Origin: Candidatus Aegiribacteria sp.
GTDB lineage: Bacteria; Fermentibacterota; Fermentibacteria; Fermentibacterales; JCC-6
Direction: 5' to 3'
DNA length: 53,633 nt
NCBI GenBank assembly: GCA_021108005.1
Contig: JAIORS010000169.1
Location: 1 to 53,633, forward strand
The notes under the pieces are model-generated. The model saw only the letters and a program-made list of their open reading frames with translations, ran no database searches and was not told the DNA's origin. This document shows, piece by piece, positions 5,107 through 53,633 of the stretch (positions are counted from its first letter, which is position 1; each line of letters starts with the position of its first letter). Made by a program: the position numbers and the translations under genes.

Positions 5107-5144
5107 AGCTATCCTTTATTGTAAGAGTTTAATTCACTCTGATG

Positions 5145-5173
5145 AGTATACTTTAAGGTTGAAATAAGGTAAA
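5145..5173 (-). promoter_or_regulatory. Candidate promoter of the C25 peptidase gene
   Basis: Minus strand TTTACC (5168-5173), 17-base spacer, TATACT (5145-5150). The -10 matches 5 of 6 and the -35 4 of 6 consensus bases; the predicted start of transcription leaves a leader of about 30 bases with AGGAT before the ATG. Bases 5174-5437 upstream contain no gene that I recognise. Confidence 0.5.
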
Positions 5174-5437
5174 GCAAAGGCTTCGTCCGGTTTGAAATCA
5201 AGATTCTTATTACCCAGTCGAACATGAGCCTGTAGTTGTGCAGAAAATCAATATAGAGAATTCCGGAATAACCGCTTCCGTTCCAACCGGCGGATGGACC
5301 CCTGTTTCCGGTGGCATTGAAACCATTGTATGCGAGCGTAACACTACCGTCGAGTTTTCTGGCACGGATAGAACCTGACCTCTCATCTTTGCCGGTGCTG
5401 AATAAACTGCCATATGCCCGGTTCACACCACTGTTGG

Positions 5438-5506
5438 CGCTGTGCTTTCACAAGGAACTTGGTTAGATTTTCGCAGGGAATACGTGAGAAATGTGATATA
5501 ATTATT
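5438..5506 (-). pseudogene. 69-base remnant of an arylamine N-acetyltransferase gene
   Basis: These 69 bases match 2212-2280 (inside the intact NAT gene, codons 31-53) at 63 positions. Read on the minus strand they still encode the NAT segment IIISHFSRIP then ENLTKFLVKAQR, with Trp replaced by Cys between. No NAT sequence is recognisable on either side. It lies immediately upstream of the intact radical SAM gene in the same relative orientation as the intact NAT lies to the radical SAM remnant at 2450, so both loci descend from one divergent NAT/radical SAM pair. Confidence 0.8.
5494..5502 (+). promoter_or_regulatory. Extended -10 promoter candidate of the radical SAM gene
   Basis: TGATATAAT is a perfect extended -10 (TGnTATAAT) located 20 bases before the ATG at 5522. 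It lies inside the NAT remnant; the corresponding bases of the intact NAT gene read TGAAATGAT, so two substitutions create it. No convincing -35 is present, which extended -10 promoters may lack. Confidence 0.45.
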
Positions 5507-5521
5507 CATTATGAAAGTCTT

Positions 5522-6496
5522 ATGGAAGACAAACGAATCCGCAATCTTAACAGTTTTTTCAGACATGTTTTCGGATGCAAAGTCAAAAAGGTAATCCTGT
5601 GGGGAGGCTTTACATGCCCGAACAGGGATGGGACCTTCAGCAGTATGGGATGTACCTTCTGCAATCCCCTTTCAAGCCGTCCTGAGACTTTTGAAGAGGG
5701 TAAGTCCATCGCGCAGCAGATGGAGGACGGCTGCAGATACATTGCCAGAAGGTATGGAGTGCAATGCTTTCTTCCCTATTTTCAGGACTATACGGCAACT
5801 TATGGGGACCCTGTCGAGTTGGATGCCCTCTATTCAGAGGCGATATCACATCCGGGAGTGGTGGGTCTTTCATTATGCACACGTCCGGACTGCCTTGAGG
5901 AACCAATGCTTGATTATATCGAGGATCTGTCCGGGCGGATATTCCTCTGGGTGGAGCTGGGTGTACAGACCTCTGACGACAGAATTCTGGAAAGCATGAA
6001 CAGATGCCATACTTCCCGTGAAACCATGAATGCTTTCAGAGCCCTGCACTCCAGAAAGATATTCTCCTCCGCTCACATGATAATTGGTTATCCCGGTTCC
6101 AGCGTAGAAACCGTTCTGGCTGATGCCGAGTTCATAAGGAAGACCCGTACAGATGGAGTCAAGCTTCAGAATCTTCATGTAATCAAGAATACTCTCATTG
6201 CGGATCAATTCGCTTCAGGTGAATTCGAACTACTGACAATGGAGGAATATGTTGATCTGGTAATACTTTTCCTTGAACACACTGAACCAAGAGTAGTAAT
6301 ACTCAGACTCACCGGAGAGGCTCCGGAAGAGCTGACCGTCGCCCCCGAATGGTCTCTTTATAAAATGATCGTCCTGAACAGAATCCACGAAGAGATGCAA
6401 CGAAGGGACACATGGCAGGGAAAAGCTCTGGGATTCAATAGATCATCCGTTGAAAGTCCACCGGATAATATCCGTGACCACTGGAGACCGGACTGA
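5522..6496 (+). CDS. YhcC-like radical SAM protein (TIGR01212 type)
   Basis: The family is defined by FTCPNRDGT followed by a GCxFC pair, an unusual wide spacing of the three [4Fe-4S]/SAM cysteines; here FTCPNRDGTFSSMGCTFCN occupies residues about 29-47. Later family features are YFQDYTATYG, GLSLCTRPDC, WVELGVQTSDDRILESMNRCH and LQNLHVIKNT. The reaction catalysed is not known to me. I start at the ATG at 5522 (324 aa) because homology begins there; the 36 upstream in-frame codons derive from antisense NAT sequence. A GAAAG lies 4 bases ahead. A partial duplicate lies at 2450-2584. The downstream gap to asnS (106 bases) has only a weak 5-bp hairpin at 6561-6577. Confidence 0.85.
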   Translation: MEDKRIRNLNSFFRHVFGCKVKKVILWGGFTCPNRDGTFSSMGCTFCNPLSSRPETFEEGKSIAQQMEDGCRYIARRYGVQCFLPYFQDYTATYGDPVELDALYSEAISHPGVVGLSLCTRPDCLEEPMLDYIEDLSGRIFLWVELGVQTSDDRILESMNRCHTSRETMNAFRALHSRKIFSSAHMIIGYPGSSVETVLADAEFIRKTRTDGVKLQNLHVIKNTLIADQFASGEFELLTMEEYVDLVILFLEHTEPRVVILRLTGEAPEELTVAPEWSLYKMIVLNRIHEEMQRRDTWQGKALGFNRSSVESPPDNIRDHWRPD

Positions 6497-6602
6497 AGTA
6501 TTGCAGGATCACCTCCCCTTTCATAGATTAAACTCTCCGAATTCTAAAGATTTGACTGAACCGGATGTTTATTCCGGAACTACCCGTTAACTGGGGGTCC
6601 TG

Positions 6603-7979
6603 ATGATTGAACGCACATCCATTAAATGCATTCTCGATGGAGAATGCAAAGAGGAAAAAGTAACCGTATACGGCTGGGTCCGAACTGCAAGATCAGCTAA
6701 GAACGTTGCATTCGCATCCATAACAGACGGTTCAGTTACTTCCCCCCTGCAGGTCGTATTCGACCGTGAGCAATTCAACGACATCTCAGGGCTGGCCACC
6801 GGAGCCTGCATAAGAGTTACAGGGAGAATCGTCAAATCACAGGGTGCTGAACAATCCCGGGAAATCAGTGCGGATGAACTGGAAATTGTCGGCCCGGCAG
6901 GAGACGATTATCCTCTTCAGAAGAAAAGGCATTCCATCGAATTCCTAAGATCATTGCCACACTTGAGGGCCAGAACAAATACCTTTGGCGCAGTATTCCG
7001 TATGAGCCACCACCTTAGTCTCGCAATCCACAGGTTCTTCGATGAAAACGGTTTCTTCTTTATCCATGCGCCGCTTATAACCACAAGCGATGCCGAGGGG
7101 GCCGGAGAAGCCTTCCAGGTTACCTCTATGCCGCTTGACAGCATTACACTGAAGAACGGTAATGTTGATTATTCGACGGATTATTTTAAGAGACAGGCTT
7201 TTCTTACTGTAAGCGCACAGCTTGAGGCCGAACCTCTTGCCCTGGCAATGGGGAAAGTATATACTTTCGGCCCTACTTTCAGGGCTGATCCATCCGATAC
7301 ACGGTTTCATACGGCGGAATTCTGGATGATCGAACCGGAGATGGCATTCTTCGACCTAGACGATGATGTTTTTCTGATAGAGGATTTCATCAAGTATACA
7401 GCCCGTTATCTTCGCGCAAAGTGTTCCGAAGATATCTCCTTCTTCAGTAAATTTTACGAAAAGGAACTCAAGGAACGATATAGAATGCTTATTGAAAGTG
7501 ATTTCGCGCGGATTACATACACCGATGCATTCGAACTCCTTAAGAAGAACAGCAGCAGTTTCGAAGTCGTACCCGAATGGGGATGTGATATATCCACTGA
7601 ATACGAAAGATTTCTTACCGATGAGTACTTCGGATGCCCTGTTTTTGTAACCGATTATCCGGCAATCATAAAACCTTTCTACATGCGGCTAAACGATGAT
7701 GGGAAAACAGTAGCTTGTACTGATCTTCTGTTCCCACAGGTCGGTGAAATTGTCGGTGGCAGCCAGAGAGAGGAAAGGCTGGATGTGCTGAGCACGAGAG
7801 CAAGGGAGTGCGGTATTGACCTTGATGATTACTCATGGTACTTCGATATAAGAAAATGGGGGTCTGCGCCCCATGCAGGGTTCGGACTGGGGTTTGAAAG
7901 GCTGCTGATGTATCTCACCGGGATGGAGAACATACGTGATGTAATTCCATTTCCAAGATCAAAAGGAAAGATGATATAA
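6603..7979 (+). CDS. asnS: Asparaginyl-tRNA synthetase
   Basis: Class II aminoacyl-tRNA synthetase that charges tRNA-Asn. An N-terminal OB-fold anticodon-binding domain (residues about 19-100, VTVYGWVRTARSAKNVAF) precedes the catalytic core. Motif 2 is FRADPSDTRFHTAEFWMIEPEM (from residue 226), and motif 3 is GFGLGFERLLMYLTG (from about 426), ending in the usual VIPFPR. The ITTSDAEGAGEAFQV segment and the C-terminal layout favour AsnRS over AspRS or LysRS. Length 458 aa is normal. A GGGGG precedes the ATG by five bases. It is followed after 43 bases by nifJ on the same strand. Confidence 0.93.
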   Translation: MIERTSIKCILDGECKEEKVTVYGWVRTARSAKNVAFASITDGSVTSPLQVVFDREQFNDISGLATGACIRVTGRIVKSQGAEQSREISADELEIVGPAGDDYPLQKKRHSIEFLRSLPHLRARTNTFGAVFRMSHHLSLAIHRFFDENGFFFIHAPLITTSDAEGAGEAFQVTSMPLDSITLKNGNVDYSTDYFKRQAFLTVSAQLEAEPLALAMGKVYTFGPTFRADPSDTRFHTAEFWMIEPEMAFFDLDDDVFLIEDFIKYTARYLRAKCSEDISFFSKFYEKELKERYRMLIESDFARITYTDAFELLKKNSSSFEVVPEWGCDISTEYERFLTDEYFGCPVFVTDYPAIIKPFYMRLNDDGKTVACTDLLFPQVGEIVGGSQREERLDVLSTRARECGIDLDDYSWYFDIRKWGSAPHAGFGLGFERLLMYLTGMENIRDVIPFPRSKGKMI

Positions 7980-11940: not shown

Positions 11941-12633
11941 TTACACCATATAGTGCTCTGTAAACCGTTTTTGCATATTCTTTTGAACCAGCGATTCTTG
12001 CTGAGCGTGGTGGGATAGTAATCCTATCATTCCCAACTTCATAACGTATGTGCCATTACTTAGGGCTGATTTGTTACAATGAGATCCATCAGAAAGGAAA
12101 TTCATATAGTTTGCTATCCATGATTGATTTCCACCTGAAAACTCCGATTCAAGTAGTTCTGTATCCTGCCATGGGTAGTTGCATACACCTGATATATGTA
12201 CATGCCCACTGGAAATGTACTCATCCAAATTAACTAATTTCTTAATAATACCTGCTCTCAATGGATTTAGATGTATATACCTCACCAGTTCCAGAAGGTA
12301 TGCCTCTTTTTCAACAAGTATAGATTTGAATCTGCTTTGAAAGACATGTCCCTGTCTCTCTGATCTTTTATTGTAATACATTGCGAATCCGGTTAGCAAT
12401 ATCTGCATACACTTTGAGAGACTGCTTTTACGTGGTTCTGCCAAGAGATGAAAGTGATTACTCATAAGTACCCAGGCATGGATTTTCAGATGTTCTTTTT
12501 CAACTAGTTTTTCTAACCTGCAAATGAAATCTTTCTGGTTTTCCGGTAAGGAAAATATATCCCTGCCATCAACAGCTCTCGATATCACATGATGGAATGA
12601 TCCCGGTTCATCAATCCTGAATGTAGTTTTCAT
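11941..12633 (-). CDS. Y1 (HUH) transposase, REP-associated/IS200-like type
   Basis: The 230-aa protein has the HUH motif as His60 and His62 in HAWVLMSNHFHLL, a candidate nucleophile at Tyr86 or Tyr87 in LTGFAMYYNKR, the GHVFQSRFKSI strand and the family hallmark LVRYIHLNPLRAGI (residues 117-130). Such proteins nick and join single-stranded DNA through a 5'-phosphotyrosine bond. Length and motif order fit REP-associated tyrosine transposases better than compact IS200 TnpA proteins. The ATG has no strong ribosome binding site. The gene and its HTH neighbour sit between 27-bp inverted repeats. Confidence 0.82.
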   Translation of the reverse strand: MKTTFRIDEPGSFHHVISRAVDGRDIFSLPENQKDFICRLEKLVEKEHLKIHAWVLMSNHFHLLAEPRKSSLSKCMQILLTGFAMYYNKRSERQGHVFQSRFKSILVEKEAYLLELVRYIHLNPLRAGIIKKLVNLDEYISSGHVHISGVCNYPWQDTELLESEFSGGNQSWIANYMNFLSDGSHCNKSALSNGTYVMKLGMIGLLSHHAQQESLVQKNMQKRFTEHYMV

Positions 12634-12745: not shown

Positions 12746-13095
12746 TGGTGGAGGCGGCGGGATTCGAACCCGCGTCCGAGGACAGGGACCTGTCGGCTCT
12801 ACATGTTTAGTCCGGATTAATGTCATCCTGCTTCGGCTCCGGTCGGCCTTTTCAGGACTAGCTCCCATTTAATCTTGCTGCTTACGTCTGGAAGCGGGGC
12901 TTCACAGCCAGCTTTCCTTCTTCCGCCCATCCCCCGGTAGGAAAGCTATTCCGGGGGGGACGGCTATTCCTGTTTACGGAATAGCGTGCCGTAATTATGC
13001 GGCAGTTATTTCTATCCGCAAGTTTAACGAGGCAGCGGATACCTCGACATGCAACCGTCAGACCACTTCTGAACCCGTCGATACCTGTCGCCCCC
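12746..13095 (-). ncRNA. ssrA: Transfer-messenger RNA (tmRNA)
   Basis: The RNA rescues stalled ribosomes. On the minus strand the 5' end GGGGGCG (13095-13089) pairs with CGCCTCC (12756-12750) as a 7-bp acceptor stem with one G-U, followed by A and an encoded CCA (12746-12748). The T arm reads GGGTTCGAATCCC. GTATCGACGGGTT and GCATGTCGAGG are the conserved 5' segments, and TATCCGC pairs with GCGGATA to form pseudoknot 1. The length (350 nt) is normal. The expected resume codon GCC after AAATAACT is followed by GCA and TAA, giving only Ala-Ala; no other frame yields a typical tag ending in ALAA. This is listed as a finding. Confidence 0.93.
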
Positions 13096-45614: not shown

Positions 45615-45691
45615 GCGCCCGTAGCTCAGCTGGATAGAGCAGCGGACTTCTAATCCGCAGGCCACAGGTTCGAATCCTGTCGGGCGTACCA
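45615..45691 (+). tRNA. tRNA-Arg (TCT), integration site of the island
   Basis: Acceptor GCGCCCG/CGGGCGT, anticodon stem GCGGA/TCCGC with loop CTTCTAA (anticodon TCT), T arm ACAGGTTCGAATCCTGT, CCA encoded (45689-45691). The gene is intact. Its 3' 42 bases are the antisense of the last codons of the serine recombinase, marking the left end of the island. Confidence 0.94.
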
Positions 45692-47230
45692 AAGTTCAAA
45701 AAGGCTGTTGGAATCATTTCCTTCAGCCTTCTTTGCTTCATAGACTCGGTTTGTATCTACAATCATATCATACGGATGTCGGAATTCTACCGAGAGATTT
45801 CCACCTTTCCAAAGGCAGTTCGAAAGTAGATTATTAAGAAGTCTTCTTTTCTCTGAACTATCTCTCTTAGAGTACGTAGTACGGGCATTTCTGATAAGTT
45901 CGAGAAGATCAACACTTCGCTCAAACTCTGCAGGATCTTCAGATTCATGTTTGACGATAGCTGAGAAGATATCCTCCATTTGATTCCTGCATATCTGTGA
46001 TTTCTCATTGAACATCTGAGGAGTAATGATACCTTCAAGCTTATCTTCATACATTGTATCCAGCTTCACCTGGAGTTTATCGTACTCAGCTTGAAGAATT
46101 GATATAGCTTTTTTCCTGTAGCTTCGTTTCTTCTTACTCATTTCCAAGTAATTATCTCTGAGAAAGTCTATTACCTCTTGATTGAACTCCAAAAGCCCCA
46201 GGAAATCACAGAATAGGCTATCTAAGACCGTTTCTCTTGTATACGGCTCATTACACTTACCCTTGTATCCTGTGCAATGGTAATAGATGTATTTGCCCTT
46301 CTTTAGCTCTCCAGTCATCATGCAGCCACAATGACCGCATCTTAATAGCCTTGAAAACGCAAAATCATGCTTCATTCGTCTTATCTTGCTGGAATTGCGG
46401 TCTAGCATAGTATCTTGAACCTTCTGCCAAAGTTGTCTGGAAACGATTGGTTGATGTTTGCCTGAATAGGTGACTTCGTTCCAGTCAAAATCACCATAGT
46501 AGATTTTGTTCTTGAGCATTTTATGTATTGCAGATCGGGCAAGAGGATTTCCAGATCCTCGTTGATTCAATCCCGCATCTCTGGCAATCTTTGACAGTTC
46601 AGATACTGAGCAATCACCTTCGGAGTATTTCTCAAATAGCATCCTGATGATTGCAGCTCTATCTGGATCTGGTTGAATGATCTTCTTGCCACTTCGTGAA
46701 ACTGCATTCAGATAACCAACAGGAGCATATGAAGGCCATAAACCCTGTCGAGCTTTCTGTTGCATTCCTTTAGTGACTTCCTCAGAAAGGTTATCAACGA
46801 ATTGCTTTGCCATTAATACTCGAATACCATGCATGAATTTCGCTGAAGATCTCGACTCAGAGGAGATGATCGTATTCTCCTTAACCAGGTGTATTTCCAG
46901 TTCAAGTTCATCAATAGTTACCCAGTCTTTGATGTTACGGTAGAGCCTGTCGGTCTTTTCAACTAAAACGGTCTTGCAGTTATCATTCTCTTTAAGGTAT
47001 GAAAGCATAGCATTGAATTGCGTTCTACCTGCTTGTTTAGCAGTTTCAACATCTTCGAAGACTCTTGCTATAGAGAAACGGTTGTTCTTAGCATACTCCC
47101 TGATCAACCTCTTTTGAGCAGGTATAGAATAACCTTCACGCTCTTGATCCTTGGATGATACACGGACGTAAAGGACTGCTTGAATCCTTCTGCCATGTAC
47201 CTTTTCTGCTCTTAATCTCTTGTTTTCCAT
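45650..47230 (-). CDS. Large serine recombinase (integrase)
   Basis: The 526-aa protein integrates and excises the island through a phosphoserine bond. Catalytic Ser25 lies in AVLYVRVSSKDQ, with EKTDRLYRN and the resolvase domain up to about residue 150. A recombinase domain follows (WPSYAPVGYL to KMLKNKIYYGDFDW), then a zinc ribbon (CGHCGCMMTGELKKGKYIYYHC) and a coiled coil (about 370-440). The last 13 or so codons (ending YARQDSNLWPAD) are read from the antisense of tRNA-Arg, a feature of elements integrated at a tRNA end. GGTGAAAGC precedes the ATG. Confidence 0.93.
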   Translation of the reverse strand: MENKRLRAEKVHGRRIQAVLYVRVSSKDQEREGYSIPAQKRLIREYAKNNRFSIARVFEDVETAKQAGRTQFNAMLSYLKENDNCKTVLVEKTDRLYRNIKDWVTIDELELEIHLVKENTIISSESRSSAKFMHGIRVLMAKQFVDNLSEEVTKGMQQKARQGLWPSYAPVGYLNAVSRSGKKIIQPDPDRAAIIRMLFEKYSEGDCSVSELSKIARDAGLNQRGSGNPLARSAIHKMLKNKIYYGDFDWNEVTYSGKHQPIVSRQLWQKVQDTMLDRNSSKIRRMKHDFAFSRLLRCGHCGCMMTGELKKGKYIYYHCTGYKGKCNEPYTRETVLDSLFCDFLGLLEFNQEVIDFLRDNYLEMSKKKRSYRKKAISILQAEYDKLQVKLDTMYEDKLEGIITPQMFNEKSQICRNQMEDIFSAIVKHESEDPAEFERSVDLLELIRNARTTYSKRDSSEKRRLLNNLLSNCLWKGGNLSVEFRHPYDMIVDTNRVYEAKKAEGNDSNSLFELWYARQDSNLWPAD

Positions 47231-47346
47231 GCTTTCACCTCTTCAATCTCTAAACCTATCTGTTTTCTGCTTTCTTCAAGGCTTTCAAAGAGCCTTTCAG
47301 AAAGCATTCAACAGAATTCCAATGCTCGAATAGCTTATCCCAACCT

Positions 47347-48666
47347 CTAAATAGCTGATGAAGCAATATCATTAATAGCTCTATCTCCTGGGTGTAAAAT
47401 CTTACTTTCCCGATTTATCTGATGTGTGTTTGCGGTGTTAGTAATAGAGGGTGATTCAGACTTTTCGGGAAAGGTTACATCTATATCTTCAATTGGTTGG
47501 TCAATGACATCAATAAGTTCTCTTACATCCTCAGTCAAAAACCAAACGCTCCTCTTGCTTTGCTTTGTCTCTGTAAGAATTCGATGTGATACCAAATCTT
47601 CACATACTCGTCTTACAGTAGTATTTGGATGACCAATAACTGTTACTAGTCCCTTCAGATCCATTTCTCCGTTCTCGCATATACTCCAAATAACTCTTCT
47701 CCTAAGTTCCGGCATCGAAGATAATCCAACTTCATGAGCCAGTTCCCAAGCTTCTTGGACATTACATCCAATAAGAATTGAACCCTTGAAAAGACTCATC
47801 AATGCTTGGGCAAATCTTGGAGAAGCTTCTATATGATGAATGTGTGTAATTTCTCTCTTATAACCATCTCTCTCTATCGTACTTCTAGCACAGGTAACCA
47901 AGGAAGCGAGTAATGCAATTCGCTCTCGAATGAAATCGTCGACTTCAGGTTCATATTTGAATTCAAGAACATGATCTACTAGAGTCTTCGTCATATTCCT
48001 AAGAGTATTTCTGACGAGACTCTTTTTGCATTCTCTACTCAAAACCATTCTGGCCTGTTCAATCGAAGTCGCTAAATCGGTTTTGATTCTGAACATTGTG
48101 AAGCGTTCACCCATTGAACTCATTGCTTCATGTTGAGAGTCGATCTTCTGAGTTACCGCCCCGATGAAGCCGATCTTGCCTTCCCAGACGGTATGCCATC
48201 CCCCATCTGTTCCAAATGCTCTTCTCATGCGACCGTCATAGATATCTCTAAGAGCTGCAAAACTTTCTAATCGAGTTTCATTGTTCATTGAAAGAACACT
48301 AGTAAAATCCTTACATATGAGAATCCCAAAATCACCAATTTCCTTGAGAAGACCGCCTTTTGCATTTTTCGCAACCTCTCTCTTAGGAGTTCCAGAAAGC
48401 AATGCTGCTTTTGTAAAAGTACCAATCTCAAAAACATCATTGAGATCCCGAAGCATATTTAGTATTTCTGTTTTACCACTTGAAGGAGAAGAGACAATTA
48501 GAAGCCATACAGGAGCACCTTCAAGGTAATTCCCTATGAACGTAGCTAAAACGATTCTCAGTGTAAGCGGATCATTCAAGTACACCCATTTGGAGAATTT
48601 CACCTCAAGGTTAAGTAAGTATTCCCTTGATTGCTCATAGATTGAAGCCTTTGATGCAATAGACAC
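47347..48666 (-). CDS. AAA+ type ATPase with likely C-terminal winged helix
   Basis: The 439-aa protein has Walker A at residues 59-66 (SSPSSGKT) and a Walker B-like GILICKDFTSVL about 55 residues later, then IGFIGAVTQKID and SSMGERFTMFRI, an arrangement like the sensor and arginine-finger region of helicase-type AAA+ proteins. Residues about 310-380 (LRRRVIWSICENGEMDLKGLVTVIGHPNTTVRRVCEDLVSHRIL) look like a winged helix. Similar proteins occur in phages and plasmids near replication genes, so a replication or origin-melting role is plausible but not shown. The start is a GTG with a weak site. I cannot name a family with confidence. Confidence 0.5.
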   Translation of the reverse strand: MSIASKASIYEQSREYLLNLEVKFSKWVYLNDPLTLRIVLATFIGNYLEGAPVWLLIVSSPSSGKTEILNMLRDLNDVFEIGTFTKAALLSGTPKREVAKNAKGGLLKEIGDFGILICKDFTSVLSMNNETRLESFAALRDIYDGRMRRAFGTDGGWHTVWEGKIGFIGAVTQKIDSQHEAMSSMGERFTMFRIKTDLATSIEQARMVLSRECKKSLVRNTLRNMTKTLVDHVLEFKYEPEVDDFIRERIALLASLVTCARSTIERDGYKREITHIHHIEASPRFAQALMSLFKGSILIGCNVQEAWELAHEVGLSSMPELRRRVIWSICENGEMDLKGLVTVIGHPNTTVRRVCEDLVSHRILTETKQSKRSVWFLTEDVRELIDVIDQPIEDIDVTFPEKSESPSITNTANTHQINRESKILHPGDRAINDIASSAI

Positions 48667-48689
48667 ACCTGGATTTGTATATAAGCTTA

Positions 48690-48884
48690 TTAGTATGCTC
48701 CCTTCTTAGTCGGGAGATCTTCGTATTGTTGAAGAGCATCCTCTCTATTCCAATCAAGCAAGATCTGTACAAAATTGAACAGAGTTTCAGAAGTTTCACG
48801 TGCATCTTCCTCGGAAAGTTGTTTTAAGGAACGAACCTGCCAGAAATGAAGTGCATTCATAGTAGTCTTTTCTTTGCTGGACAT
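48690..48884 (-). CDS. Small hypothetical protein
   Basis: The 64-aa product (MSSKEKTTMNALHFWQVRSL...) is charged, mostly helical by appearance, with no membrane segment or known motif. GAGGGATGG lies before the ATG, which supports translation. It lies 23 bases upstream of the AAA+ gene on the same strand, so the two are probably co-transcribed and may work together. Confidence 0.5.
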   Translation of the reverse strand: MSSKEKTTMNALHFWQVRSLKQLSEEDARETSETLFNFVQILLDWNREDALQQYEDLPTKKGAY

Positions 48885-48935
48885 TTGAGAACCATCCCTC
48901 GTATATACACTTCAGAATGGCTCTGATAGCTATGC

Positions 48936-49181
48936 TTATTCATTATATTCTTGCTTCAACGCTCCCATGGCGGGAATCGCTTTTACTTCATTGATTTCAT
49001 TTACCGAAATCAGGAACCTGTAATTTCGTCCATACTCAATGTTGACTTCTCTCTTATTCTTGCTCGTTACCCTCGCTTTTATAACAATCTTTCCATAGCC
49101 ATATTTCGCACAATCCAATAGACATTCAAGCATCTTCTCTGAACATTCCAGGTACTGCTTGTTCTTACTGTCTATGTGCAT
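48936..49181 (-). CDS. Small hypothetical protein under the island operator
   Basis: The 81-aa protein starts MHIDSKNKQYLECSEKML and continues with alternating strands (GKIVIKARVTSKNKREVNIEYGRNYRFLI). No family is recognised. It is the first gene after the operator at 49201-49220, so it is probably the first gene of the repressed leftward transcript together with the small gene and the AAA+ ATPase. By position it could be an early regulator or an excision-type protein; nothing in the sequence shows which. Confidence 0.5.
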   Translation of the reverse strand: MHIDSKNKQYLECSEKMLECLLDCAKYGYGKIVIKARVTSKNKREVNIEYGRNYRFLISVNEINEVKAIPAMGALKQEYNE

Positions 49182-49200
49182 AGGTATCGCAATTCATTTA

Positions 49201-49220
49201 TGTACAGTACCCACTGAACA
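49201..49220. promoter_or_regulatory. Operator 1 of the XRE regulator
   Basis: TGTACAGT-ACCC-ACTGAACA is an inverted repeat (one mismatch between arms) 19 bases before the 81-aa gene. It matches the perfect palindrome at 49741-49760 at 17 of 20 positions. The two copies enclose the regulator gene. Confidence 0.7.
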
Positions 49221-49239
49221 CATGAGGTAAAAAAACTCA

Positions 49240-49713
49240 TCATGTTCGCTTTCCATTTCTCAACGACATGTGAATTTCCTTAACTTGCTCCGTAAGCATG
49301 GAAATCTCTTCATCTTCTGTCTCATCAAGGAGTTTTCCATATTCATCAGCGATAAGTATTTGTAAGCAGGGCAAAACAAGTACATCCATAATACTTTTCT
49401 GTTTAAGACCAATGAATGATTCTGCTAACAGTTTTGGGATTTCAGGATGATCACTGAGAAGATCTGAAAGTGAATGAGTAGGTCTTCTGGCTAATCTAGC
49501 AAGCTTAATGGGATCTTCATTTAGTTCCTGAGCAAGGTGAGTAATAAGAAAGATGTTAGAAGGAGGAGGGAGCTTCCCCTGCTCGATTTGAGAAAGATAA
49601 GAAGGACTAATGCCGACTCTTCTTGCGAGCTCGCGAAGGCTCATATCACCTTCACGATGGCGAAGCTCCCTTATTCGAATACCGAAATCGGGTTTGAATT
49701 CCATTAGAGTCAA
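49240..49713 (-). CDS. XRE-family transcriptional regulator
   Basis: The 157-aa protein has a lambda-repressor type HTH (SLRELARRVGISPSYLSQIEQGKLPPP, about residues 24-50), then a helical region (LAQELNEDPIKLARLARRP) and a C-terminal part of unknown fold. It probably represses its own gene and the leftward genes, because matching operators lie at both promoters. A TTG start at 49713 has AAGGA seven bases upstream; an ATG three codons later (49704) lacks such a site. It is the likely master regulator of island maintenance. Confidence 0.85.
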   Translation of the reverse strand: MTLMEFKPDFGIRIRELRHREGDMSLRELARRVGISPSYLSQIEQGKLPPPSNIFLITHLAQELNEDPIKLARLARRPTHSLSDLLSDHPEIPKLLAESFIGLKQKSIMDVLVLPCLQILIADEYGKLLDETEDEEISMLTEQVKEIHMSLRNGKRT

Positions 49714-49740
49714 AGCAAAATCCTTTCTGACATCTTTCTC

Positions 49741-49760
49741 TGTTCAGTATCTACTGAACA
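49741..49760. promoter_or_regulatory. Operator 2 of the XRE regulator, over its own promoter
   Basis: TGTTCAGTA-TC-TACTGAACA is a perfect palindrome. On the minus strand a TTGACA lies just upstream (about 49769-49774), so a bound repressor would cover the -10 region of the regulator's promoter. A half site (TGTACAGT, 49846-49853) lies ahead of the rightward cassette, and another (TGTTCAGT, 53452-53459) ahead of the gene at 53148. Confidence 0.75.
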
Positions 49761-49866
49761 CATATTCTCTTGTCAAGTGCGGAATACAGCATTGACTTAG
49801 ACTATAGTTATGTTACAGAATCTGAGTAACACGACATTTAATGGATGTACAGTTCATGAGTACTAA

Positions 49867-50586
49867 GTGAATGAAGTAATCGAAGGAGGAACTCAAATAG
49901 GCTCATCAAGGAAACCTAGAATTATTAGGTATGGTGAGAAGAATGTGTTACGCCTTGAGGAAGAATTTTTTGAGAAATATCCGTGTGAATCATACACAGA
50001 ACAATGGATTAGAAATCATCCGGAATGGACTAAAGCTGCAGCAGCCTTGGTTGAATCTCTGCATAAAAGAGAGGTTTCGAGAACACAATCAGCTACAAAG
50101 AAGGCTCATCTTGTGTTAACTGCATCTTTTGTTGCATTAGGCGTTATTGGATGGATTATAGCCACATTCCTTGGTGGTATATTCCCAATTGAAGTTACTT
50201 CAGTGTCTTTGTGGCAAGGTGTTATTACGCCAATTATTAGCTTAGCATCAGCAAGTCTAGCAGCAGTGTTTCTGATATATGCAATTTGGTGGGCTCTAGA
50301 TGCTCTTAAACCAATAGTGTTTTCTGACATTAAAATAGAGAATGCTCTTCGACTAAAGAACAAAAAAAGTACGAACCAAGATGAAAAAGAAAAGAATCTG
50401 GATGAATCTTTTGATTTGCGGGAGTTCTGCACAAGAAGAATTTATCTTGATTGGCAGTGTATCTATGTAAGAGAGAGCTTAAATGAGAGTCTACTTCTTT
50501 CCTTTTCACGGGCTTGGCATCGTCTAGCCTTTGGAATAACTTTGCTATTATGTTCATGGTTAAGTGGATTAATATCTAGAATGTGA
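49867..50586 (+). CDS. Membrane protein of the rightward cassette
   Basis: The 239-aa protein has a soluble N-terminal part (about 1-78, with EEEFFEKYPCESYTEQWIRNHPEW), two membrane helices (about 81-103 and 118-145), a charged cytoplasmic stretch rich in Lys and Glu (about 155-180), and a third helix at the end (about 217-237). No family is recognised. The start is a GTG at 49867 with no clear ribosome binding site, so it is uncertain; a GGAGG lies inside the frame at about 49884 without a usable start codon after it. It is the first of five same-strand genes. Confidence 0.6.
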   Translation: MNEVIEGGTQIGSSRKPRIIRYGEKNVLRLEEEFFEKYPCESYTEQWIRNHPEWTKAAAALVESLHKREVSRTQSATKKAHLVLTASFVALGVIGWIIATFLGGIFPIEVTSVSLWQGVITPIISLASASLAAVFLIYAIWWALDALKPIVFSDIKIENALRLKNKKSTNQDEKEKNLDESFDLREFCTRRIYLDWQCIYVRESLNESLLLSFSRAWHRLAFGITLLLCSWLSGLISRM

Positions 50587-50593
50587 GGATAGA

Positions 50594-50836
50594 ATGACTG
50601 CGAAGAAAACAAACTCAAGTAATGAAGCTTCGATGGAAACTTCATCAAGTGATACTTCAACTTCAGAAACAGCATCATCAACTAGTGATTCTCCAGAACC
50701 CATTGCTAGTATAGCACCCATTGATAGGCATGGAAGAATTGTTACTGCAAGTGTGAAAACCAATGAAAATTCCACTAAAGTAATATTTGCTGTAAGAAAA
50801 TCTGAAGAAAACTCTAATTCATCAGATAAAGAATAA
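50594..50836 (+). CDS. Ser/Thr-rich small protein
   Basis: The 80-aa product begins with a low-complexity, acidic Ser/Thr-rich half (MTAKKTNSSNEASMETSSSD...), then a more ordered stretch (IASIAPIDRHGRIVTASVKTN, KVIFAVRK) and a charged tail. No family, signal peptide or helix is recognised. GAGGATAGA lies before the ATG, and it starts eight bases after the membrane protein stop, so it is translated with it. It directly precedes the Ntn-hydrolase-like gene; whether it is a substrate, adaptor or inhibitor is unknown. Confidence 0.5.
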   Translation: MTAKKTNSSNEASMETSSSDTSTSETASSTSDSPEPIASIAPIDRHGRIVTASVKTNENSTKVIFAVRKSEENSNSSDKE

Positions 50837-50891
50837 TACTTCTGCCTCAAAGGCTCAGTATTCATTCGATAGCAAAATGTAAGGATAGTAA

Positions 50892-51668
50892 GTGTCAATA
50901 CTTATTGTAGAACTTCTAGATTGCGGTATTGTCTTTGGTGCTGATCAAAATGTTGACATTCCCAATCAAGATGATCCAAATAAAGAAATAAAAATATTCA
51001 AGTGGCCCCGGGAAGATGTTCTGTTTGGGTATGTTGGAGTTGCAAGATTGGGGGGATTAGACATAAAAAAATGGTTAGATAGCCAACTTTCACAATTTAC
51101 AAACAGAATGAGATTATCAGAAATAGCAGAGCATCTAAGGGATCAAATCGAGAAGCAATATTTAGAGGATAATTATTCTACTAATCCACCACTTATTGTT
51201 CATCTAGGAGGTTATGAATATTCAGAGTGGGGTTATATTCCTCAGATATGGCATATAGCTAATGTGAAAAGGCTTGGTAGATTCAATTACCTTGAGTTTA
51301 CGAGAGAATTCTACTGTGTGGATGGTTTCGCTGTAGAAATGAGGAAAAGAGAAGTATCGGATTTAGAAATACAGGATTATCTTTGTGTACTAGCTAAGCA
51401 ATTCAATCCATTTTGGTTTCATCAGGGCTTTGACTATATGGCCTTTAATATACTTGAACAAGCAGTCAAGCAAGCATATAAAGGTCTATGCTCAGTACAT
51501 CCTGATTCTGATTTTGTATTACCCCGGAATATTGAAGATTGGGAGAAACAAGTCCGATTTTCAATTCTCATGTATGGAGCGTATTTTCAGGCATATAAAC
51601 CAAGAAATGAACAATACGTCGGAGGTGAAGCTGATACTCTTGCAATACCATGGCCAAAATTCAAGTAA
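50892..51668 (+). CDS. Proteasome-beta/HslV-like Ntn hydrolase
   Basis: The 258-aa protein begins M-SILIVELLDCGIVFGADQN. Counting from Ser2 as residue 1 (Met is normally removed before Ser), Asp falls at 17 (GADQ) and Lys at 33 (EIKIFKW), the positions of the catalytic Thr1-Asp17-Lys33 set of proteasome beta subunits; a Gly-rich turn (FGYVGVARLGG) follows as in the beta fold near Gly47. The nucleophile would be Ser instead of Thr. The C-terminal about 100 residues (DYMAFNILEQAVKQAYKGL...) may correspond to the helical layer plus an extension. The start is a GTG after GGATA. No AAA+ unfoldase of Clp/HslU type is next to it. The assignment rests on motif register, not on alignment. Confidence 0.6.
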   Translation: MSILIVELLDCGIVFGADQNVDIPNQDDPNKEIKIFKWPREDVLFGYVGVARLGGLDIKKWLDSQLSQFTNRMRLSEIAEHLRDQIEKQYLEDNYSTNPPLIVHLGGYEYSEWGYIPQIWHIANVKRLGRFNYLEFTREFYCVDGFAVEMRKREVSDLEIQDYLCVLAKQFNPFWFHQGFDYMAFNILEQAVKQAYKGLCSVHPDSDFVLPRNIEDWEKQVRFSILMYGAYFQAYKPRNEQYVGGEADTLAIPWPKFK

Positions 51669-51729
51669 TTTGAGTTCTTTAGCAGATTACAAAGCATAAC
51701 TATTAATTCATATAAGGAAGGGGCAGACA

Positions 51730-52035
51730 ATGGGTGAATGGGCTGATTATTGTATAGTTGCAATTAGATATGGAAATTCACGCAAAGAAATTTCACATCT
51801 TAAGGTGAGAAGAGATCTCTCTAGTCATTTTGGATCTCCTGAAACTTGGACAAAGGAAGAGACTAGAATAAAGATCACAGACTTCTTCAGGGATATAATT
51901 ACCATGACTTATGATGGTGAAAATTGGAATAAAGGAGCAAAGGTTCAAGCTGTAAGAATTGATAATAACTATTATCTCCGAACAAATGCGAATAGTATCA
52001 AGGAAGATAACCTTGGAGAACTTCCTGAATTCTAA
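51730..52035 (+). CDS. DUF3892-like small protein
   Basis: The 101-aa protein has the general layout I associate with DUF3892: an N-terminal strand (DYCIVAIRYGNSRKEISHLKV), a helix beginning TKEETRIKITDFF, and the ending NNYYLRTNANSIKEDNLGELPEF, close to the family's yLrT...DNL..LP ending. The function of that family is unknown. A strong AAGGAAGGGG lies before the ATG. Fourth gene of the cassette, 61 bases after the hydrolase gene. Confidence 0.6.
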   Translation: MGEWADYCIVAIRYGNSRKEISHLKVRRDLSSHFGSPETWTKEETRIKITDFFRDIITMTYDGENWNKGAKVQAVRIDNNYYLRTNANSIKEDNLGELPEF

Positions 52036-52091
52036 AAGAAGAGGGTTCAGTTCCTATTGAGATTATGTAGAGTAAAATAGTCTGGAAAAAC

Positions 52092-52814
52092 ATGTCAGAA
52101 GTTCCTAATAAAACTGAATCAAGGGCAAACTGGTCGCTGGGAATGTCCATACTAGCATTAGTAGTGTCAATAATAGCTGGGATTTACTTTCCATATTTTC
52201 TGGAAGATCGCGAACTTTCTTTACTAACATCCGGTTTTAGTTATATCACTCACACAACTATAGAGAATGATAGCACAATAACGAATATTCTTGCCTGCGA
52301 TCTCACATTTACTAATAATGGTAATCGAACAGAAGTTGTCCTAAGTACGAAGTTTGTCTTACCTTTTTTCCTTAACTTTTGTGAGTTCGCTGGATTTTAC
52401 TGGAATGTGCAGTACCAGCAGGTCCAGTTACCTCCGTTTTCTATCAAACCTGGAGAAAAACTGGTATTTAGACTAGAGCAACTCATTGATGATAATGCTA
52501 TTCTTGGGCCATCCATCAATAATCCAGGCTATACTGGATTTGGCTTTAATCTGGCAAATAGGATAATTGCGCTTGAAGTTTTACTGGTCGGGCAATATGG
52601 AGTACCCCAATTTAACGTAATTCCAATTGCAGGGGCATTCCTCAATCCAAACACTTCGAATTTATCTTGGAGACTATTTTCGAGTTTTGATGATTTCTAC
52701 AGTTATGGTGGTGTGACGCTTACTAGAAATCTACTTGATACAGAACACTTCGCATGGGAATATTTCCCTAAACGAGATGCTCCATATATTCAAAATAACA
52801 CTCTTGTACATTAG
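52092..52814 (+). CDS. Membrane-anchored protein of the cassette
   Basis: The 240-aa protein has one N-terminal membrane helix (about 14-36, NWSLGMSILALVVSIIAGIYFPYF) followed by a beta-rich domain with CDLTFTNNGNRTEVVLST and LPPFSIKPGEKLVFRL, the pattern of an Ig-like or bacterial-surface fold. No catalytic motif is seen. It would sit on the outer face of the cytoplasmic membrane or be cytoplasmic, depending on helix orientation. GGA lies before the ATG. Last gene of the cassette. Confidence 0.6.
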   Translation: MSEVPNKTESRANWSLGMSILALVVSIIAGIYFPYFLEDRELSLLTSGFSYITHTTIENDSTITNILACDLTFTNNGNRTEVVLSTKFVLPFFLNFCEFAGFYWNVQYQQVQLPPFSIKPGEKLVFRLEQLIDDNAILGPSINNPGYTGFGFNLANRIIALEVLLVGQYGVPQFNVIPIAGAFLNPNTSNLSWRLFSSFDDFYSYGGVTLTRNLLDTEHFAWEYFPKRDAPYIQNNTLVH

Positions 52815-52842
52815 CACTAGATAATTTGTATGGATTACATCG

Positions 52843-52889
52843 TGAAATAACTATTTCATCTCGAGATGCGTCAACTAGCGTACTAGTTG
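52843..52889. repeat. Two short palindromes after the cassette
   Basis: TGAAATA-ac-TATTTCA (52843-52858) and CAACTAG-cgta-CTAGTTG (52872-52889) are perfect 7-bp inverted repeats. Neither has a T-run. They may end the cassette transcript or be recombinase-related sites near the island's right end. The rest of 52815-52953 shows no gene. Confidence 0.5.
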
Positions 52890-52953
52890 TTAAAGCGTCC
52901 ACTACGGTCCACTATCTCATCATTCTAGAACCCTAATTTCAACATTGGTACAA

Positions 52954-52982
52954 GTTCGGAAAGTGTCCAATACCGGGTACCA
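52954..52982 (+). repeat. Copy A of a 29-bp direct repeat, at the proposed right attachment site
   Basis: Matches 53517-53545 at 23 of 29 positions (shared core AGTGTC and GGGTACCA). Its end continues into TACCAAAG, shared with the tRNA-Arg 3' junction. A shorter, weaker relative (AGCGTCCACTACGG) lies at about 52893. Confidence 0.55.
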
Positions 52983-53023
52983 AAGAAAACGGAGCGGCGG
53001 GAACCACCTCTCCGGTTTTCTTT
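52982..53023 (+). terminator. Strong terminator, probably the displaced end of the tRNA operon
   Basis: AAAGAAAACGGAG pairs with CTCCGGTTTTCTTT (one bulge) around a 15-base loop, giving 13 pairs with T-rich descending arm. It follows directly on the TACCAAAG that also follows tRNA-Arg at the left end. Confidence 0.75.
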
Positions 53024-53065: not shown

Positions 53066-53131
53066 TGAGTTTATCCTGAGCGAGTGAAACGAGTCGAAGG
53101 GAATCCCGTCGGGGGTAGACGTACAAACTCA
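53066..53131. repeat. Imperfect palindromic intergenic repeat
   Basis: TGAGTTT (53066-53072) and AAACTCA (53125-53131) enclose TCCTGAGCGAGTG and CGAGTCGAAGGG, words that recur in the dispersed repeats of many unrelated bacterial genomes. Only one copy is present in the window. No open frame is associated with it. Confidence 0.45.
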
Positions 53132-53147: not shown

Positions 53148-53438
53148 TCAAGAGATAACCTTTATTGGATGTTCGAACTCATTACTTAACTCGAATGAAA
53201 TGCTACCAATTCTCATATGATTGATGCCCTCGTTGCCATAATCAGTGAAAAGACGAAGTCTATCCCCAGCAGTTGCAGGAGTACAACCAGCTTCCATCCA
53301 ATCATCTCTATTCATCGAAACAAGCTCAGATGCCATTTTTTTAGAAACAAGGAATTTTGATGCATCAGGATTCTTGTCCATTAAATCATTTAACTGTGCA
53401 AAAAAAGCATTTGCTGGTGTCTTGTACTGTTGAGACAT
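53148..53438 (-). CDS. Small hypothetical protein
   Basis: The 96-aa product (MSQQYKTPANAFFAQLNDLM...) has a helical first half and a strand-rich second half (MRIGSISFELSNEFEHPIKVIS). No family, signal or membrane segment is recognised. GGAAAA precedes the ATG. A half copy of the XRE operator (TGTTCAGT, 53452-53459) lies just upstream, which could mean that the gene belongs to a related element and not to the old chromosome. It lies between the two 29-bp direct repeats. Confidence 0.5.
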   Translation of the reverse strand: MSQQYKTPANAFFAQLNDLMDKNPDASKFLVSKKMASELVSMNRDDWMEAGCTPATAGDRLRLFTDYGNEGINHMRIGSISFELSNEFEHPIKVIS

Positions 53439-53516: not shown

Positions 53517-53545
53517 GTTCTAAGAGTGTCTACTACGGGGTACCA
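53517..53545 (+). repeat. Copy B of the 29-bp direct repeat
   Basis: Partner of 52954-52982 (23 of 29). The two copies enclose the terminator, the palindromic repeat and the gene at 53148, about 530 bases. The remaining sequence to the window end (53546-53633) shows nothing that I recognise. Confidence 0.5.
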
Positions 53546-53633
53546 TATTCCAGAATTTTCGAAATTCTCCGAAAATGACGGCTCTACACCATTAACAGGG
53601 GCACCTATCCAATTTAAGCACATAAGGCTCTGA

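What the first reader, a model, noticed from the sequence alone, without database searches (positions are those of the whole stretch)
49867..52814. Undescribed five-gene cassette: two membrane proteins, a Ser/Thr-rich peptide, an Ntn hydrolase and a DUF3892-like protein
Seen: five same-strand genes with 8 to 61 base gaps fill the right half of an integrase island, opposite to the integrase/repressor half. Known: anti-phage and other defence systems are often cargo of such islands and often join a membrane effector to a protease. Inference: this may be a defence or conflict system in which a proteolytic step controls a membrane protein. I know of no named system with this set.
Basis: inference. 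Interest (0 to 1): 0.72.

Follow-up and report, generated by a model that had tools for sequence, protein, structure and literature searches.

The report
Proteasome-like protease cassette in satellite island
A small mobile island in an uncultured bacterium carries five unexplained genes, one of them a distant relative of the proteasome's cutting subunit, in the place where related islands carry known virus-defence genes, so it may be a new kind of protease-controlled defence, although it has so far been seen in only one genome.

Summary
Five same-strand ORFs (49867-52814; gaps 7, 55, 61 and 56 nt) fill the right half of a 7.3 kb island in the 3' end of a tRNA-Arg, bounded by a GTACCAAAG repeat; a sister species shows the original flank. 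The left half has a large serine recombinase, a phage-type replication ATPase and an HTH repressor, so the island resembles a capsid-less phage satellite. The host phylum is Candidatus Fermentibacterota.

The 258-aa protein has no detectable sequence relative, but it is very probably a divergent proteasome-like Ntn hydrolase. Its first 50 residues align without gaps to HslV, with Ser1, Asp17, Lys33 and the oxyanion glycine in register (1 of 200,000 shuffles scored as well). A template-free model, though of low confidence, matches proteasome beta subunits. DUF3892 is confirmed.

The cargo genes tested are absent from 41 other genomes of the phylum. Elements with the same recombinase/repressor backbone carry other cargo instead, including Upx and paired ThsB/TIR defence genes.

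A defence role with a proteolytic step is plausible, not shown. Co-occurrence of the set could not be shown, and only one genome has it.

The parts
45615..45691 (+). tRNA-Arg(TCT), integration target; its 3' end is the left attachment site
   Evidence: ARAGORN; sister species share sequence up to the tRNA 3' end and diverge after it
45686..45694 (+). left copy of attachment repeat GTACCAAAG
45650..47230 (-). large serine recombinase; its last codons are the antisense of the tRNA
   Evidence: Resolvase, Recombinase and Zn_ribbon_recom Pfam domains, phrog_95 integrase 1.7e-82
47347..48666 (-). P-loop replication-type ATPase (PSSGKTE motif); relatives in phage contigs lie next to or are fused to DNA primase
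   Evidence: A3 alignment; sister islands 36-38% identity; viral contigs with primase and terminase genes
48690..48884 (-). small ORF, 64 aa, backbone; weak counterpart in sister island L066
   Evidence: E 0.003
48936..49181 (-). small protein, 81 aa, backbone, conserved in sister islands L062 and L066
49201..49220 (.). operator-like dyad TGTACAGTACCCACTGAACA upstream of the 81-aa gene
49240..49713 (-). HTH (Cro/C1 type) repressor
   Evidence: HTH_31 5.7e-12; sister islands
49741..49760 (.). operator-like perfect dyad TGTTCAGTATCTACTGAACA between repressor and cargo
49867..50586 (+). cargo gene 1: membrane protein, 239 aa, three predicted TM helices (about residues 80-110, 117-150, 219-238), candidate effector
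   Evidence: weak phrog_944 6e-4 and PycTM 0.004
50594..50836 (+). cargo gene 2: 80-aa Ser/Thr-rich (36%) probably disordered peptide
   Evidence: no family hit
50892..51668 (+). cargo gene 3: proteasome-like Ntn hydrolase, 258 aa; predicted nucleophile Ser2 (Ser1 after Met removal), Asp18, Lys34, oxyanion Gly49; no propeptide (TAA directly precedes the GTG start)
51730..52035 (+). cargo gene 4: DUF3892 protein, 101 aa, candidate sensor
   Evidence: PF13031 4.8e-10, above cut-off; phrog_32719 2.9e-13
52092..52814 (+). cargo gene 5: single N-terminal TM helix plus soluble domain, 240 aa
   Evidence: no family hit
52976..52984 (+). right copy of attachment repeat GTACCAAAG; the host tRNA terminator and flank follow

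Best explanation
The island is a small phage-satellite-like integrative element: serine recombinase, phage-type replication ATPase and repressor, with no capsid or packaging genes recognised. It sits in tRNA-Arg, and the five genes are its exchangeable cargo, most likely a defence or conflict cassette. Proposed working: the DUF3892 protein senses an infection cue (an RNA or altered ribosomes). This engages the proteasome-like Ntn hydrolase, whose N-terminal serine is freed by ordinary Met removal and needs no propeptide. It then cleaves one of its neighbours, the Ser/Thr-rich peptide or a cytosolic part of a membrane protein, releasing or opening the membrane effector so that the infected cell stops or dies. 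Shown: island anatomy, cargo swapping on a shared backbone, defence genes as cargo of sister islands, DUF3892, catalytic residues of the hydrolase. Inferred: that the five genes act together, the order of the steps, the substrate and the anti-phage effect.
For: Island limits and empty flank in a sister species. Backbone genes shared, cargo not, with elements of sister species. Sister cargo: Upx E 3e-152 directly beside the repressor in L059, and DUF6338 plus Ser/Pro-rich peptide plus RES domain further along; two ThsB-type TIR proteins in L066. Ten core genes of the window give no PADLOC hit at 1e-8. Hydrolase: ungapped register with HslV at S1/D17/K33/G48, z 4.8, 1 of 200,000 shuffles, best of 813 ORFs; template-free single-sequence model matches proteasome beta and Anbu chains (Z 8.7, 89 residues, 2.3 A), while gene 5 handled the same way gave pTM 0.20 against 0.41. 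DUF3892 has been proposed as a sensor of viral RNA or modified ribosomes in predicted immune proteins (PMC12419801). Proteolytic activation of a partner effector is an established defence mechanism (PMC12799240).
Against: No second copy of the set was found; each cargo gene tested (1, 3, 4, 5) is absent from 41 other genomes of the phylum. DUF3892 occurs without such neighbours on plasmids. No known defence profile hits the cargo above chance. The HslV alignment does not stand out in hhalign, and the fold model has mean pLDDT 39. Nothing tests proteolysis or phage resistance.
Confidence: 0.42

Rival explanations
1. The five genes are unrelated cargo genes (morons) collected one by one, for example a DUF3892 gene plus a membrane-protein/peptide pair plus a hydrolase, without a joint function.
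For: No co-occurrence found elsewhere; DUF3892 stands alone on Klebsiella, Lacticaseibacillus and haloarchaeal plasmids. A sister island joins Upx with a separate DUF6338/RES group, so mixed cargo is known here. Gaps of 55-61 nt and a weak terminator-like hairpin at 52025-52050 leave room for separate units.
Against: All five are on one strand with short gaps and no strong internal terminator or promoter; genes 1 and 2 are 7 nt apart.
Confidence: 0.3
2. The cassette serves the element itself: superinfection exclusion, interference with a helper phage, or addiction (toxin-antitoxin-like), with the hydrolase destroying a labile inhibitor of the membrane protein.
For: The island has a satellite-like anatomy with a phage replication ATPase and repressor dyads; satellites often carry phage-interference genes (general knowledge). 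The labile Ser/Thr-rich peptide next to a membrane protein would fit an inhibitor.
Against: No toxin, antitoxin or interference family was recognised. This rival overlaps with defence in its effect.
Confidence: 0.18
3. Peptide processing and export: the Ser/Thr-rich 80-aa peptide is a substrate that the hydrolase trims and the membrane proteins export as a signal or bacteriocin-like product.
For: Order membrane protein, small peptide, hydrolase resembles peptide-maturation operons; the peptide is low-complexity.
Against: No transporter, radical-SAM, lanthionine or leader family was recognised; the membrane proteins have 3 and 1 TM helices, unlike exporters.
Confidence: 0.07

Closest known systems
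Proteasome-like family (HslV, Anbu, BPH, connectase and 22 uncharacterised homolog groups; PMC8665760)
   Same: N-terminal Ser/Thr nucleophile, Asp17, Lys33 and oxyanion Gly in the same register; no propeptide, as in the newly described groups
   Different: No significant sequence or profile match to Pfam PF00227 or to HslV; C-terminal half has no detectable relative; sits in a mobile cassette, whereas that paper found no genomic context suggestive of function for its groups
DUF3892 fused to Min-Wnt in predicted antiviral proteins (PMC12419801)
   Same: DUF3892 domain above the Pfam cut-off
   Different: Stand-alone protein, no Min-Wnt domain; partners are a hydrolase and membrane proteins
Protease-activated defence effectors (Hachiman/AVAST nuclease-protease pairs, caspase-nuclease, PMC12799240; bacterial gasdermins)
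   Same: Would work alike: a protease switches on an effector
   Different: Proteasome-like Ntn hydrolase in place of trypsin-like or caspase-type protease; membrane proteins in place of nuclease; no homology shown
Phage satellites and small integrative islands with defence cargo (PICI-like; general knowledge)
   Same: Integrase, repressor, phage-type replication ATPase, tRNA target, exchangeable cargo, about 7 kb, no structural genes
   Different: No packaging-interference genes recognised; helper dependence unknown; serine instead of tyrosine recombinase

Membership tests
Proteasome-like Ntn hydrolase | N-terminal Thr/Ser nucleophile exposed after processing | tested here: met
   Start GTG-TCA gives Met-Ser; an in-frame TAA directly precedes the start, so no propeptide. 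Met removal itself is inferred
Proteasome-like Ntn hydrolase | Asp17 and Lys33 of the catalytic triad | tested here: met
   Asp18 and Lys34 (17 and 33 after Met removal), ungapped to HslV; criteria from PMC8665760
Proteasome-like Ntn hydrolase | Oxyanion-hole glycine near 47 | tested here: met
   Gly at 48 after Met removal, aligned with HslV Gly48 in VLxG[FY]xG
Proteasome-like Ntn hydrolase | Four-layer beta/alpha Ntn fold | tested here: inconclusive
   Single-sequence model pLDDT 39, pTM 0.41; top VIA matches are proteasome beta/Anbu chains, Z up to 8.7 over about 90 residues, which is near the background for unclear models; Foldseek best E 0.064
HslV | HslU ATPase partner encoded beside it | tested here: not met
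   No HslU-like gene in the cassette; the genome has a separate HslV on contig C154
DUF3892 (PF13031) | Score over the Pfam gathering cut-off | tested here: met
   40.2 bits against 22.3
Min-Wnt/DUF3892 antiviral proteins | Min-Wnt domain fused to DUF3892 | tested here: not met
   The protein is 101 aa and the match spans residues 9-99
Pycsar (PycTM effector) | Nucleotide cyclase partner PycC | tested here: not met
   No cyclase in the island; the PycTM match of gene 1 is weak, E 0.004
Thoeris | ThsA/ThsB (TIR) genes | tested here: not met
   None in the window cassette; TIR ThsB only in sister island L066
Phage satellite (PICI-like) | Integrase, repressor and replication gene without structural genes | tested here: met
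   no head/tail family above chance in the island
Phage satellite (PICI-like) | Induction and packaging by a helper phage | not testable with these tools
   needs culture; host is known only from metagenomes

The most novel reading that the evidence does not exclude
A new defence system type in which a stand-alone, propeptide-free proteasome-like Ntn hydrolase, linked to a DUF3892 sensor, controls one or two membrane effectors; it would be the first genomic context that points to a function in immunity for such a proteasome-like homolog.
Probability: 0.27. Interest if true: 0.78.

Novelty: new variant of a known kind. Interest (0 to 1): 0.5.

Why it matters
Many proteasome homologs outside the proteasome itself have no known role, and the survey that listed 22 new groups found no genomic context suggestive of a function (PMC8665760). 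A proteasome-like hydrolase in a slot where sister elements carry Upx and Thoeris-type genes gives a testable hypothesis: immunity by regulated proteolysis with a proteasome-type enzyme. It also shows a family of small satellite-like islands with swappable defence cargo in Candidatus Fermentibacterota, a phylum known from metagenomes.

Tried and rejected
Profile libraries (Pfam, NCBIfam, PADLOC, PHROGs) and PDB sequences gave nothing for the hydrolase. tblastn against plasmids and phages found no relative even at E 10, nor did exact-peptide scans of viral and genome contigs. I widened the peptide patterns with made-up alignments of conservative variants of the hydrolase (A1, A2; artificial rows, used for pattern making only); still no relative in viral contigs. 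hhalign of the single sequence against an HslV alignment was not above shuffles, although its best local alignment was in catalytic register, which led to the fixed-register test. Gene 5 could not be modelled. I compared genes 1 and 5 with the membrane protein of sister island L062 because they look alike; no similarity. Other phyla could not be reached by whole-genome search. Gasdermin, CBASS and CRISPR membership: no family hit for any cargo gene; not pursued further.

Full report
WHAT IS THERE. The window is contig C169 of a metagenome genome of 3.2 Mb. Relatives of its backbone ATPase in named genomes are all Candidatus Sabulitectum, which places the phylum as Candidatus Fermentibacterota. 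Codon-position composition is that of AT-rich coding sequence, and the region drops to 36-40% GC against 46-50% around it.

THE ISLAND. tRNA-Arg(TCT) lies at 45615-45691. Sister species share sequence with the window up to the 3' end of this tRNA and then diverge. GTACCAAAG at its end (45686-45694) recurs at 52976-52984. To the right of the second copy comes a terminator-like hairpin and a stretch (GTGGATTCGGACTT...GAGTCGAAGGGAATCC) that aligns to what directly follows tRNA-Arg in L020, a species of the same genus. So the insert is about 45695-52984, 7.3 kb. The last codons of the recombinase lie antisense within the tRNA.

THE BACKBONE. On the - strand: large serine recombinase (phrog_95 1.7e-82), a P-loop ATPase, two small proteins and an HTH repressor. 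The ATPase has no Pfam hit, but an alignment with its counterparts in sister islands found relatives at 22-36% identity in viral contigs. In three of those that I read, the neighbourhood is phage-like: terminase and HNH genes in L103, a CHC2/Toprim primase gene directly upstream in L104, and fusion to a primase beside a terminase in L106. It is therefore a phage-type replication ATPase (inference), and the island looks like a capsid-less satellite. A dyad, TGTTCAGTATCTACTGAACA, occurs at 49741-49760 and in a near copy at 49201-49220, bracketing the repressor gene; both fit the consensus exactly while 0.34 matches with up to three mismatches are expected. The consensus was written from these two sites, so the count only shows that no others exist. 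The repressor probably acts on itself and on the backbone operon (inference).

THE CARGO IS EXCHANGEABLE, AND SISTER CARGO IS DEFENCE. Eighteen of 42 genomes of the phylum have recombinase matches; the ten nearest are 38-41% identical and most were read with their surroundings. Recombinase and HTH are shared, and ATPase and small proteins in part. None of the five cargo genes is found in these islands. Whole-genome searches with genes 1, 3, 4 (family) and 5 find no copy in the other 41 genomes. In their place L059 has a 1224-aa Upx protein (PADLOC E 3e-152) directly divergent from the repressor, and further along DUF6338 (6e-35), a 72-aa Ser/Pro-rich peptide and a RES-domain protein. L066 has two ThsB-type TIR proteins (Pfam 1.7e-19 and 4.7e-5). 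L061, L062 and L064 carry unrecognised genes, several of them apparent membrane proteins. Ten core genes of the window gave no PADLOC hit at 1e-8. The sample is small and several contigs end inside the element, so this is guilt by position, not proof.

THE HYDROLASE. No profile or sequence search finds a relative. Two partly independent tests support the proteasome-like fold. First, with Met removed, residues 1-50 align without a gap to HslV of the same phylum: S1/T1, D17, K33 and G48 coincide, with KIxK and VLxG[FY]xG around them. The mean BLOSUM62 score is 12.75 against -52.4 (sd 13.7) for shuffles; 1 of 200,000 shuffles reaches it, and it is the best of 813 ORFs and of all registers within the protein. 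The proteasome-like family is defined by Thr1/Ser1, Asp17, Lys33 and Gly47 (PMC8665760). The start codon is preceded at once by an in-frame TAA, so there is no propeptide; that paper reports propeptides only in proteasome beta and HslV. Second, a template-free model from the single sequence is poor (pLDDT 39, pTM 0.41), yet of the 50 best VIA matches nearly all are proteasome or Anbu chains (Z 7.1-8.7, about 90 residues at 2.3-3 A), with model residue 33 or 34 falling on chain residue 34 in several rows. Foldseek alone is not significant (E 0.064) and the Z is near the background for unclear models. Gene 5, treated the same way, gave pTM 0.20. I put the Ntn assignment at about 0.9; which of the known groups it belongs to, if any, I could not test. 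The N-terminal residue would be Ser, not Thr. Active proteolysis is inferred; connectase shows that a member can instead be a ligase.

DUF3892. The match is real. In the literature it is fused to Min-Wnt effectors in predicted antiviral proteins and suggested to sense viral RNA or modified ribosomes (PMC12419801). On plasmids it stands alone in varied settings, so it does not by itself mark a system.

MEMBRANE GENES AND PEPTIDE. Gene 1 has three predicted TM helices with charged stretches between them and weak hits to phrog_944 (6e-4) and PycTM (0.004), which I treat as shared TM layout. Gene 5 has one N-terminal TM helix and a soluble domain. Gene 2 is Ser/Thr-rich and without family. L059 shows the same order of membrane protein followed within about 10 nt by a short low-complexity peptide, without sequence similarity.

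HOW IT MOST LIKELY WORKS. DUF3892 senses, the hydrolase cuts a neighbour, a membrane effector acts. The plan follows known protease-gated defence (PMC12799240), with a different protease class. Each step beyond gene identity is inference. The main rival is that the cargo is a mixed bag.

LIMITS. Outside the phylum I could only look for near relatives (plasmids, phages, exact-peptide scans), so 'only in one genome' means 'no near relative in reach'.

Noticed in passing
window 53098-53124 and 53536-53560: To the right of the island, further degenerate copies of the tRNA-Arg 3' end (AATCCCGTCGGGGGTAGACGTACA; GGGGTACCATATTCCAGAATTTTC) flank a 96-aa ORF (53148-53438), suggesting older insertions in tandem at the same tRNA; L020 has an intact second tRNA 3' copy at the matching place.
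   Followed up: partly
L059:7456-11130 and 4739-7194: Sister island carries Upx beside its repressor and, further along, DUF6338 + 72-aa Ser/Pro-rich peptide + RES-domain protein: a membrane protein plus short disordered peptide again.
   Followed up: partly
L066:5748-6811: Sister element carries two ThsB-type TIR proteins without a recognised ThsA on the short contig.
   Followed up: partly
L062:9197-9937: NYN/HEC-09-like protein (PADLOC 4e-15) near a sister island; whether inside its limits is not settled.
   Followed up: no
L054 (G009:C88): Another species of the genus has a related recombinase, broken at its 5' end and followed by transposase-like genes, in the very same tRNA-Arg.
   Followed up: partly
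L103:4243-5649, L104:9962-11284, L106:6408-8666: The island's ATPase family, without Pfam or PHROG model, occurs in phage contigs next to or fused to CHC2/Toprim primases: an unnamed phage replication ATPase family.
   Followed up: partly
window 11941-12633 and 12746-13095: A REP-associated (Y1) transposase-like gene lies beside the tmRNA gene (tag AASLNLRIEITAA by ARAGORN).
   Followed up: no
window 49201-49220 and 49741-49760: Matching operator-like dyads bracket the repressor gene.
   Followed up: partly
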